From contig AP017959.1 in NCBI GenBank assembly GCA_002356215.1, forward strand, positions 2,000,195 through 2,064,194: a stretch of DNA of 64,000 bases, given 5' to 3'. Positions 57,713 through 60,346 of the stretch are shown in pieces (the first letter of the stretch is position 1; each line of letters starts with the position of its first letter). The notes beneath the pieces were generated by a model. The model was given only the letters and a program-made list of their open reading frames with translations, did no database searches and had not been told where the DNA came from. The DNA comes from [Synechococcus] sp. NIES-970 (GTDB lineage: Bacteria > Cyanobacteriota > Cyanobacteriia > Cyanobacteriales > MRBY01). A program made the translations under genes and the position numbers.

Positions 57713-60235
57713 TTACAAACCGACCACAATCTGGGCGATCGCCCAACCTAGACCGAGGCTGGTGAGGTGCTGGGGCCAAAGCGATCGCCAGGGTTGTTTG
57801 CTGATTTTTTTCGTGAGGATGAGGGTGCAGAGGGTCGCAAAAATAAGGGTTACACCCTGGAGAAAGGCAATCACAGCGGGATGGGCCACCACAATCGGTA
57901 ATGCAGCGCCTTGGAGACCAAAGGTGGCCATGGTCACGGGCAAAATGCGGCCCGCTTCCCCCAAACCGAGGCGCAGATAATGGGCAAGACTCCCCCCAAG
58001 TACCAGTGGTAAATAGCCGTAAGTCAGTTGGAGAAAGGATTTGGACTTAGGCAATGCGCCGAAGTATTGCACAGTTGCCCCCGTGAGTAAAACGACACCG
58101 GCGGGAACCAAGAGGGCGGCGATCGCCAAACCGCAGTGAGGCCAAAATTGGGTGAGGTCCACATTTAAGTCCAGTACTTGATTAATTTCTGGCAGACGGT
58201 GGAGAAAAATCCCCCCCAGCAGGAGCAGTAAAAGAGCCACTTCATAGGTGCGGGGTTGGTGGGTCGTCCACAGTTCAATGGCCGGGGGCCGCAAATTTAC
58301 CGCCACCGATCGATGGGGGCAAGCTTTCAGACAGGTCATGCACAGGACACAATCGCGGTTATCCTCCAATTGGGCCGGATGGGAATAGAGGGGGCAACCG
58401 TTCGTTTCTAAGCCTTCACCCTTTTGGGGGCCACCTTTATAACATTGGTAGGTGCTGCATTCAGCAGAACAAGTGCCCTGTTGTGCCCGTAATTCTGTGA
58501 TCGCCAGTTTCGCAAAGAGGCCATTCATGCCGCCGATGGGACAAAGATAGCGGCACCAGAAGCGCCGTTCAAAGATCGCCGAGCAGATCATTGCCCCGGC
58601 GGTAATGATAATGAGTAGCCAAGCCGAGAGGTAGGCGGTATTTTCCAGCTCCCACAGTTCTTCCCAGAGAAAAATTAGGGTAAACAGGCCAAACAGGAAC
58701 CAGCCGCCCCATTTTTCCGCCTGCTGGCGGGGCCAAGGCTTGAGGTCCCGTTTGAGAAATTCAGTAGTGATTTTTTGGGTGATTTCCCCGTAGATCATAA
58801 ACGGACAGACCGCACACCAGAGACGACCCACAAAGGGAAAGGCGAGGAGCACTAATGGCCACCACCAGGCCCAAAAGAAATTCAAGGCAAAGTTTTGGTC
58901 ACGGGTCTGGGGGGCGAGGAAGAGGATGGCAATAATTAACGGAAAGGCGATCGCCGTAAAACCATAATTGAGGCGATCGGGCCACCAGGCGCTACGCAGG
59001 AACGAGCGGAGGGCTGGGTAAGCGTTAAGCAGATTGAAGCGAAAGCGTTTTTGTTTACCCTGGGCAGACCAAAAAATCTCTTCAGTCAGATCGGCCCCCT
59101 GATCCGATTGGACGATCGCCCGTTCCACCAAATTTTTCAGCTCGCGGATATTGTTGGGAAAATCGTAGGACTGGAGCCGTCGCAGGGCTTCGGGGGTTAG
59201 TTTGGGTTTCGGCAGACCCTTCGCCCGACAATAAAGGCTGGTGTAATAATCCACTTGGGCGGCAAGGTCGGCTTTTCGGACCCTGAGCGGCGGCACTTTG
59301 ATCGTTTCAGAAAAATGACGTGCTAGGGCCGGCAGTTGTTTTTCGGCGATCGCCACCAATTTTGCCGCAGTTTGCTGGGGGACAGGGTCCGGATCACCAG
59401 GGCGACTGATGGGGGTATAGGTTTGGGTTTGAATCAGAGTTGCAACCTTATCAATTAATTCTGGCGGCAGTTCTTCGATTTTGTTCAGGATCAACGTTCC
59501 CTCCTCAAGCCAAGCCAGCAGCCCTTTTTTGCCATCGGTGCGGCCAAACAGTTCCGCACCACTTTTTTGGAGGAGGTTGCAGTCAAGTTTAATGATCGGC
59601 TGCCGTCGCCGGGGGGAGCCATAGTGAATCAGCGCTGCCAAGTTGTCTTTTTCTAAACCCGGTTCCCCAAAGATATAGACAGAACGGCCATGGGTGCCCG
59701 CCTCACGAATTTGCTGCCTGAGTCGCTGGGCATAACGACTTTTACCGACGACTCCCCGTTTTGCCTTGGCCACAAAGTAGGGCCGGAGCACTTCCTGTTG
59801 TTGTTGTTCCTGCTGGAGGGCATTGGTGACGGTGGCTAACTCCTGGGCCAAATCTTGGGAAAAAGTCTGGGCAATTTCGGGATATTGTTGCACCAGTTTT
59901 TGCCATTGGTGACGGGGCATAAACCAGACTTGCGCCTCGGTGACGGTGGCGATCGCCTCTGGAGAAACTTGAGCAAGGAGCAGTTCCCGGAGGTTAAATA
60001 TCGTCCCTTGGGTAGCGGCATTCGTCTCGGGTGTATTCGTTGCCGTCTGGGTTGCAACTTTCCCGGTAATCAGGAGATAAAAACCCTTGGGAACTTGGCC
60101 CATTTCACTAATGGGGATCCCCGGTGGCAGGGTTTGTGGTTCGAGGACGGCGGCGATCGCCCCCAAAACCGCATCCGGCAAACAGCCGAGGGTGGTGCGT
60201 TCCCGGAGCCAAATGAGTCGTTCTTGGGCAGTCAT
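57713..60235 (-). CDS. Fusion of CAP-like sensor, defunct sigma-54-type AAA domain and NosR/NapH-like Fe-S membrane domain
   Basis: From ATG 60235 the protein has 840 aa (a TTG five codons earlier is possible). Residues about 20-130 look like a cyclic-nucleotide-binding domain (FYLLITGKVATQT). About 160-385 follow sigma-54 activators but are damaged: the P-loop reads GEPGLEKD, the GAFTGA loop is missing after ELFG, and Walker B reads LILNKIEELP with Lys for Glu. After the NNIRELKNLVERAI helix comes a membrane part with about eight helices. The Cys motifs are CAVCP, CRYLCP, and CVLCMTCLKACP (near 629-640). This resembles NosR/NapH/CcoG electron carriers. Cyanobacteria lack sigma-54, so a transcription role is unlikely; membrane redox sensing is an inference. 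Confidence 0.75.
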   Translation of the reverse strand: MTAQERLIWLRERTTLGCLPDAVLGAIAAVLEPQTLPPGIPISEMGQVPKGFYLLITGKVATQTATNTPETNAATQGTIFNLRELLLAQVSPEAIATVTEAQVWFMPRHQWQKLVQQYPEIAQTFSQDLAQELATVTNALQQEQQQQEVLRPYFVAKAKRGVVGKSRYAQRLRQQIREAGTHGRSVYIFGEPGLEKDNLAALIHYGSPRRRQPIIKLDCNLLQKSGAELFGRTDGKKGLLAWLEEGTLILNKIEELPPELIDKVATLIQTQTYTPISRPGDPDPVPQQTAAKLVAIAEKQLPALARHFSETIKVPPLRVRKADLAAQVDYYTSLYCRAKGLPKPKLTPEALRRLQSYDFPNNIRELKNLVERAIVQSDQGADLTEEIFWSAQGKQKRFRFNLLNAYPALRSFLRSAWWPDRLNYGFTAIAFPLIIAILFLAPQTRDQNFALNFFWAWWWPLVLLAFPFVGRLWCAVCPFMIYGEITQKITTEFLKRDLKPWPRQQAEKWGGWFLFGLFTLIFLWEELWELENTAYLSAWLLIIITAGAMICSAIFERRFWCRYLCPIGGMNGLFAKLAITELRAQQGTCSAECSTYQCYKGGPQKGEGLETNGCPLYSHPAQLEDNRDCVLCMTCLKACPHRSVAVNLRPPAIELWTTHQPRTYEVALLLLLLGGIFLHRLPEINQVLDLNVDLTQFWPHCGLAIAALLVPAGVVLLTGATVQYFGALPKSKSFLQLTYGYLPLVLGGSLAHYLRLGLGEAGRILPVTMATFGLQGAALPIVVAHPAVIAFLQGVTLIFATLCTLILTKKISKQPWRSLWPQHLTSLGLGWAIAQIVVGL

Positions 60236-60346
60236 GGTGATTTTCCTCAAACCCTACTTTTTTTAGCTTAAGCCGCTTAGATTTTTAGCACCGATTTTCC
60301 ACAGAAAAAGCTACATTGATGTCAGTGGCTGGCGAAAAATTAGACG

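What the first reader, a model, noticed from the sequence alone, without database searches (positions are those of the whole stretch)
57713..60235. Three-part fusion with a disabled sigma-54-activator AAA domain and an Fe-S membrane domain
Seen: a cNMP-binding-like start, an AAA region aligned to sigma-54 activators but lacking the GAFTGA loop, with GEPGLEKD at the P-loop and LNK at Walker B, then about eight helices with CxxC, CxxxCP and CxxCxxCxxxCP motifs. Known: cyanobacteria have no RpoN, and GAFTGA contacts sigma-54. Inference: the AAA part has become a structural or sensing module that couples an intracellular signal to a NosR/NapH-like electron-transfer domain.
Basis: partly seen in the sequence, partly recalled or inferred. 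Interest (0 to 1): 0.75.

Follow-up and report, generated by a model that had tools for sequence, protein, structure and literature searches.

The report
Disabled gene-activator fused to electron-transfer protein
Many cyanobacteria carry one protein in which a worn-out gene-switch motor, no longer able to burn ATP or touch its usual partner, is joined to a membrane iron-sulfur electron-transfer unit, which suggests that a transcription regulator was recycled to control electron flow.

Summary
Window 57713-60235 (-) is one intact 840-aa gene: a cNMP-binding-like domain, a sigma-54-activator AAA+ domain with lid, and about nine transmembrane helices with 12 cysteines in CxxCP, CxxxCP, an unusual C-x3-C-x4-C-x15-CP and CxxCxxCxxxCP motifs. 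It is no joining artefact: the fusion occurs in about 72 of 292 sampled genomes of the phylum, all in the window's class. None of about 130 homologues has GAFTGA. Walker B acids are replaced, the arginine-finger segment is deleted, no DNA-binding domain follows, and the genome has no rpoN. The 12 cysteines are invariant and the Fe-S segment averages 89% identity, so the membrane module is probably the output. Corrections: a sister subfamily (about 40% identical) keeps a good P-loop, and the cNMP pocket has also lost its arginine. CysK lies beside the sister gene in 16 of 24 loci (main group 1 of 83), often with sulfide/persulfide genes, pointing to sulfur redox. The membrane module has free-standing relatives in Deinococcus and haloarchaea and resembles NapH and FtrD. 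The same genome holds a second Fe-S-membrane/cNMP-like fusion. Most likely: a membrane redox protein under a pseudo-NtrC regulatory cap; partner and signal unknown.

The parts
57713..60235 (-). whole fusion gene, 840 aa from ATG at 60235 (the longest frame starts at TTG 60250)
   Evidence: GAGG Shine-Dalgarno sequence before the ATG; homologues start at the same place
59882..60136 (-). cNMP-binding-like domain (residues 39-123), phosphate-binding Arg absent
   Evidence: Pfam PF00027 1.3e-8; PDB CNBD hits; column survey
59777..59878 (-). long linker helix (residues 125-158) between CNBD and AAA
   Evidence: AlphaFold model
59333..59749 (-). pseudo sigma-54-activator AAA+ core (residues 168-306)
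   Evidence: Pfam PF00158 9.6e-14; PDB phmmer VpsR/NifA/PspF; Foldseek to PspF/NtrC1
59642..59668 (-). altered P-loop GEPGLEKDN (residues 195-203)
   Evidence: K and D invariant in 91/91; second Gly is E in 67, G in 13, D in 8
59522..59551 (-). place where GAFTGA should be: LFGRTDGKKG, loop deleted (residues 234-243)
   Evidence: alignment with PspF, NifA, VpsR; absent from all homologues
59480..59497 (-). Walker B remnant TLILNK (residues 252-257), DE replaced by NK
   Evidence: N in 89/91 and N/K/D at the Glu position
59096..59284 (-). AAA+ lid (residues 323-385), ends without a Fis/HTH domain
   Evidence: Pfam AAA_lid_14 3.3e-13; no HTH family found
58574..58987 (-). transmembrane helices 1-4 (residues 422-559), NapH/NosR/FtrD-like core
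   Evidence: models; TIGR02163 napH_ 2.5e-12; 75% mean identity
58802..58816 (-). CxxCP (Cys479, Cys482), cytosolic end of helix 2
   Evidence: invariant 95/95 and 14/14
58538..58555 (-). CxxxCP (Cys566, Cys570) after helix 4
   Evidence: invariant 94/94 and 14/14
58316..58471 (-). cytosolic Fe-S segment: C-x3-C-x4-C-x15-CP (594,598,603,619) and CxxCxxCxxxCP (634,637,640,644)
   Evidence: all eight invariant; residues 561-660 average 89% pairwise identity
57725..58249 (-). transmembrane helices 5-9 (residues 668-842)
   Evidence: models; alignable in Deinococcus, haloarchaeal and Sulfurovum proteins

Best explanation
A cyanobacterial membrane redox protein with a regulatory cap made from a retired enhancer-binding protein. 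Output (inferred from motif conservation): a nine-helix NapH/FtrD/NosR-like module carrying cytosolic four-cysteine sets, most likely two [4Fe-4S] clusters plus the CxxCP/CxxxCP pair, which moves electrons between a cytosolic carrier and the quinone pool or a partner at the other face. Cap: the cNMP-binding-like domain and pseudo-AAA+ domain very probably no longer bind DNA (no HTH), touch sigma-54 (no GAFTGA) or hydrolyse ATP (no Walker B acids, arginine-finger segment deleted). They keep the NtrC-type fold and their own conserved signature (RGxxGxSRYA...GEPGLxKDN...LFGR...GTLxLNN...VPPLRVRKAD), and probably act as an oligomerisation, ligand-sensing or partner-docking scaffold that gates the membrane module. 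In the sister subfamily the cap may still bind nucleotide, and the output probably serves sulfide/persulfide metabolism next to cysteine synthase. Shown: architecture, motif losses, conservation, distribution, gene linkage. Inferred: cluster content, direction of electron flow, gating, the partner.
For: Domains. Fold of the AAA part: Foldseek TM 0.82 to ATP-bound NtrC1, 0.78 to PspF. GAFTGA absent in all homologues; Walker B DE replaced in 91/91; arginine-finger segment deleted. No rpoN in the genome, no convincing one in 390 genomes of the class, and sigma-54 and its activators were reported absent from 29 cyanobacteria (PMC3162934). Twelve invariant cysteines; conservation falls from 89% in the Fe-S segment and 75% in TM1-4 to 58% in the AAA core and 43% in the CNBD. 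CNBD absent in Pseudanabaena, Cyanobiaceae and two further lineages while AAA and Fe-S stay together. The membrane module stands alone in Deinococcus and haloarchaea. Sister subfamily beside cysK in 16/24 loci against 1/83, with rhodanese, persulfide-dioxygenase-like, SQR-like, cydAB or Hdr genes in several.
Against: No biochemical data were found for any member. The main subfamily has no conserved neighbours, so its partner is unknown and the sulfur link may not carry over. No solved structure matches the membrane module by sequence or by Foldseek, and the model is poor in the Fe-S loops (block pLDDT 36-57), so cluster geometry is unverified. Whether the cap gates anything is not tested; it could be passive.
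Confidence: 0.6

Rival explanations
1. Reverse direction: the membrane Fe-S module is the sensor (quinone pool, oxygen or sulfide redox state) and the pseudo-AAA/CNBD cap is the output, signalling to a cytosolic partner such as a sigma-70-type factor or an enzyme (CysK in the sister group).
For: bEBP-derived proteins without a working GAFTGA can still act on transcription through sigma-70 (TyrR, DhaR, HupR; PMC3162934). VpsR is the best PDB match of the AAA part and also lacks GAFTGA. The sister gene is paired with cysK, and CysK is known to bind partners (own knowledge).
Against: No HTH or other DNA-binding domain, unlike TyrR, DhaR, HupR or VpsR. Conservation is by far highest in the Fe-S/TM part, and the cap is the part that lineages trim.
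Confidence: 0.22
2. The cap is a vestige: a neutral fusion of a decaying bEBP to a membrane polyferredoxin, tolerated but without function.
For: P-loop glycine, Walker B, GAFTGA, arginine finger and cNMP arginine are all lost; the CNBD was dropped in several lineages and the GAFTGA/LFGR region was deleted outright in some Cyanobiaceae.
Against: The AAA and lid regions still average 58-65% identity, and GEPGL-KDN is kept across lineages that share only about 45% identity overall. No cyanobacterial homologue was seen with an intact membrane module but no AAA part.
Confidence: 0.1
3. Metal-linked function: the membrane module works like FtrD in ferrous-iron uptake (or in zinc/iron homeostasis), accepting electrons during metal permeation.
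For: FtrD of rhizobial ftrABCD loci is a recognisable relative of the TM1-4/Fe-S part (28-32% over about 200 aa in the search with the Deinococcus relative). In marine Cyanobiaceae the gene lies between an SDR and a Fur-family gene, with zinc ABC transporter genes (identified by eye) next to one more (L122).
Against: No Zur-like boxes above chance upstream. No FTR1 or cupredoxin neighbours were seen among the neighbours that I read. FtrD lacks the C-x3-C-x4-C-x15-C set and aligns poorly over TM5-9.
Confidence: 0.15
4. Two genes joined by sequencing or assembly error.
For: Some draft genomes show split ORFs (L089, L097, L098, L114, L138).
Against: Dozens of independent assemblies, including complete genomes, encode it in one frame.
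Confidence: 0.01

Closest known systems
Sigma-70-dependent relatives of bacterial enhancer-binding proteins (VpsR, TyrR, HupR, DhaR)
   Same: NtrC-type AAA+ fold with GAFTGA lost; VpsR also has a changed Walker B (LLND)
   Different: those are DNA-binding transcription regulators, with an intact P-loop in VpsR; here there is no HTH, the P-loop is altered in most members and the C-terminus is a membrane Fe-S module
NapH / MauN family (TIGR02163), NosR C-terminal part, RdhC/PceC
   Same: four-helix core with two Cys-x2/3-Cys-Pro motifs, and a cytosolic Fe-S segment as in NapH/NosR
   Different: score far below family cut-off (46.9 against 213 bits); five more helices, unusual first cluster spacing, N-terminal CNBD-AAA cap, no FMN domain
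FtrD, polyferredoxin of FtrABCD ferrous-iron transporters
   Same: recognisable similarity over TM1-4 and the Fe-S segment in BLAST matches
   Different: operon with FTR1/cupredoxin; lacks several of the cysteines; no cap
Free-standing '4Fe-4S binding proteins' of Deinococcus ficus and haloarchaea
   Same: align over the nine-helix module; the Deinococcus protein keeps the 12-cysteine layout and the CYKG motif
   Different: no CNBD, no AAA; function unknown; haloarchaeal ones lack most of the first cluster
Second fusion in the same genome (G000:C1:2561123-2563882, 920 aa)
   Same: Fer4_5 membrane module plus a cNMP-binding-like domain in one cyanobacterial protein
   Different: opposite order (CNBD at the C-terminus), no AAA domain, only local similarity

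Membership tests
Sigma-54 enhancer-binding proteins | NtrC-type AAA+ domain with lid | tested here: met
Sigma-54 enhancer-binding proteins | GAFTGA loop | tested here: not met
   absent in all homologues, present in controls
Sigma-54 enhancer-binding proteins | Walker A GxxGxGK and Walker B DE, arginine finger | tested here: not met
   GEPGLEKD, NK, finger segment deleted; Walker A is retained in a minority and in the sister group
Sigma-54 enhancer-binding proteins | C-terminal Fis-type HTH | tested here: not met
   replaced by membrane helices
Sigma-54 enhancer-binding proteins | rpoN in the same genome | tested here: not met
   class survey
cNMP-binding domain proteins | domain fold | tested here: met
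cNMP-binding domain proteins | phosphate-binding cassette with Arg | tested here: not met
   column survey
NapH/MauN family (TIGR02163) | curated score cut-off 213 bits | tested here: not met
   46.9 bits
NapH/NosR-like membrane Fe-S superfamily (Fer4_5) | two Fer4_5 motifs at TM ends on the cytosolic side, plus a ferredoxin-like Cys set | tested here: met
   (the side of the membrane is a prediction)
NapH/NosR-like membrane Fe-S superfamily (Fer4_5) | actual Fe-S clusters and quinol oxidation | not testable with these tools
   needs EPR/Moessbauer and redox assay

The most novel reading that the evidence does not exclude
In cyanobacteria, which lack sigma-54, an enhancer-binding protein was converted into a catalytically dead AAA+ cap that directly regulates a membrane iron-sulfur electron-transfer protein, with a sister branch that still binds ATP and serves sulfide/persulfide metabolism: post-translational control of electron flow by a former transcription activator.
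Probability: 0.45. Interest if true: 0.75.

Novelty: new variant of a known kind. Interest (0 to 1): 0.6.

Why it matters
It is a widespread, highly conserved and, as far as the searched literature shows, undescribed cyanobacterial redox protein. Its architecture is a clear candidate for a DNA-level regulator reused as a protein-level one in organisms without its sigma factor. The sister subfamily gives a concrete handle (cysK and sulfide genes), so the function can be tested. It also explains why sigma-54-activator annotations such as 'nitrogen assimilation regulatory protein' appear in organisms without sigma-54.

Tried and rejected
Assembly artefact: rejected. Canonical cNMP sensing: the cassette Arg is missing. 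Zur, NtcA, CRP, LexA or RpaB control: upstream matches do not exceed shuffles. Conserved neighbourhood for the main group: none; the SDR near the window gene is 46% identical to the SDR next to the marine Cyanobiaceae gene but is not seen near the gene in Picosynechococcus PCC 7117 (L037), so taken as chance. rpoN in the class: two hits over the cut-off in 390 genomes; L117 is a 202-aa fragment with only an RpoN-box-like part, and L118 (94 aa) was not followed. Fold search of the membrane module: nothing below E 0.29. Literature: ten searches found no paper on this architecture. Cyclase co-occurrence with the CNBD was considered and not run, because the cNMP pocket is lost. Homologues of the fusion outside the phylum could be sought only in the plasmid collection, where the only full-length hits were two cyanobacterial plasmids.

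Full report
Observation. The frame 57713-60250 (-) is open for 845 codons from TTG. Residue numbers below count from the TTG. Pfam places cNMP_binding at 39-123, Sigma54_activat at 168-306, AAA_lid_14 at 323-385 and Fer4_5 twice (best stretch 543-582), all above their curated cut-offs. The AAA part matches VpsR, NifA and PspF in the PDB at 1e-21 to 1e-19. An AlphaFold model (mean pLDDT 81) has a CNBD, a long linker helix, an AAA+ fold that superposes on PspF/NtrC1 (TM up to 0.82 by target length) and nine membrane helices. A second model of the membrane half reaches pTM 0.84, but the Fe-S loops are poorly modelled.

Is it one gene? Yes. A search of 292 genomes of the phylum and of genome contigs returned many homologues. 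By my count of the listed matches, about 72 of the 292 genomes encode the AAA plus Fe-S fusion, nearly always in one frame, and all lie in the window's class. Genomes of other classes of the phylum match only the AAA, the CNBD or the membrane part. The window's genome is Picosynechococcus-like: L008, from a genome of the same genus, is identical over the compared region to L037 (Picosynechococcus sp. PCC 7117).

What has been lost. In 91 main-group sequences the P-loop reads GEPGL[E/G/D]KDN with few exceptions. Lys and Asp are invariant; the glycine before Lys is Glu in 67, Gly in 13 and Asp in 8. On a tree the Glu label needs 12 changes, 9 of them forced by well-supported branches, so the position is not held as a nucleotide-binding glycine. 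Walker B Asp is Asn in 89 of 91 and the catalytic Glu is Asn, Lys or Asp. The segment with the arginine finger is deleted relative to PspF and NifA. No GAFTGA-like string exists in any homologue, while the PspF and NifA controls have it. No HTH follows the lid. The CNBD lacks the phosphate-cassette Arg in nearly all sequences. It is absent altogether in Pseudanabaena, in Cyanobiaceae and in two further lineages.

Sigma-54. The genome has no Sigma54_DBD match. Among 390 genomes of the class only two small ORFs pass the cut-off; the better one is a 202-aa fragment. The published survey also found sigma-54 and its activators absent from 29 cyanobacteria, and it lists TyrR, DhaR and HupR as sigma-70-dependent proteins with defective GAFTGA (PMC3162934).

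What has been kept. Twelve cysteines (479, 482, 566, 570, 594, 598, 603, 619, 634, 637, 640, 644) are invariant in the main group and in the sister group. Mean pairwise identity is 89% in residues 561-660, 75% in TM1-4, 57% in TM5-9, 58% in the AAA core, 65% in the lid and 43% in the CNBD. The order of constraint points to the Fe-S module as the functional core. By the positive-inside rule and the cytosolic cap, all 12 cysteines face the cytosol (inference).

The membrane module. It scores 46.9 bits against TIGR02163 NapH/MauN, far under that family's cut-off. Free-standing relatives covering the whole module occur in Deinococcus ficus and haloarchaea, and a more distant one in Sulfurovum. FtrD of rhizobial ftrABCD-type ferrous-iron loci is a relative of the first half. 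The first cluster motif, C-x3-C-x4-C-x15-CP with a YKGG/GEG/SHPAQL surround, is shared in full only with the Deinococcus protein, with altered spacing, among those aligned. For NosR and NapH, published work reports two 4Fe-4S centres, an unassigned role of the CX3CP motifs, and quinol-to-partner electron transfer (PMC5928378). No solved structure matches this module by sequence or by Foldseek.

The sister subfamily. About 40% identical, with an intact P-loop of the GxGKT kind in nearly all members, Walker B mostly [D/S]N, no GAFTGA and a stronger CNBD score. CysK lies in the flanks of 16 of 24 such loci against 1 of 83 main-group loci (Fisher p 2.6e-12; loci are related, so this is not a true probability), usually directly downstream on the same strand. 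Rhodanese, a metallo-beta-lactamase/rhodanese fusion of persulfide-dioxygenase type, ArsR, an SQR-like flavoprotein and cydAB occur in several. Hdr-like genes occur in two, and on two plasmids a Rieske gene and a psbA lie nearby. This places the sister group in sulfur redox metabolism. For the main group no neighbour is conserved.

A second fusion. The window's own genome encodes another protein (920 aa, C1:2561123-2563882) with a Fer4_5 membrane module at the N-terminus and a cNMP-binding-like domain at the C-terminus. It is found in a minority of the 117 genomes sampled. The pairing of a CNBD-like domain with a membrane Fe-S module has thus probably arisen twice, in different order, which favours a regulatory meaning (inference).

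Interpretation. The best reading is a membrane electron-transfer protein whose cytosolic cap is a retired enhancer-binding protein. The motif losses are shown. That the cap senses or gates is inferred from its continued conservation. Electron donor, acceptor and signal are unknown.

Scores. The architecture is unusual and widespread and I found no description of it in the papers searched, but every module belongs to a known kind and no function is shown: interest 0.6, new variant of a known kind.

Noticed in passing
G000:C1:2561123-2563882 (L156:2624-5386): Second Fe-S-membrane plus cNMP-binding-like fusion in the same genome, domains in opposite order, no AAA; its CNBD also appears to lack the cassette Arg.
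   Followed up: partly
L123, L124, L155 (marine Cyanobiaceae): Gene order SDR - fusion gene (CNBD-less) - Fur-family regulator - putative metal-dependent hydrolase on one strand; possible operon and metal link.
   Followed up: partly
L153, L154: Sister-subfamily gene next to HdrB/HdrC/HdrA-like genes, a small membrane protein that looks like a cytochrome b, and rhodanese (L153).
   Followed up: partly
L148:1752-3731 (G106, same phylum, other class): 660-aa ORF with two tandem sigma-54-activator AAA domains, GAYTGA in the first and GSFTNA in the second.
   Followed up: no
L117:1459-2067 (G125): Isolated RpoN-box-like DNA-binding fragment of 202 aa in a cyanobacterium in which no other Sigma54_DBD match was seen.
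   Followed up: partly
L073:5892-8000 (Moorena bouillonii): A transposase-like gene lies between a free CNBD ORF and the AAA-Fe-S ORF, apparently an insertion that split the fusion gene.
   Followed up: no
L130, L131 (second copies in G054, G066): Divergent extra copies of the main-group gene with altered motifs (P-loop GEPSSGKDN in L130) but all cysteines aligned in the Fe-S segment; a possible third paralogue.
   Followed up: no
L155:8877-10857 and L127 (G257): The fusion gene appears frameshifted in one marine genome, in the stretch where the others have the first cluster motif.
   Followed up: no
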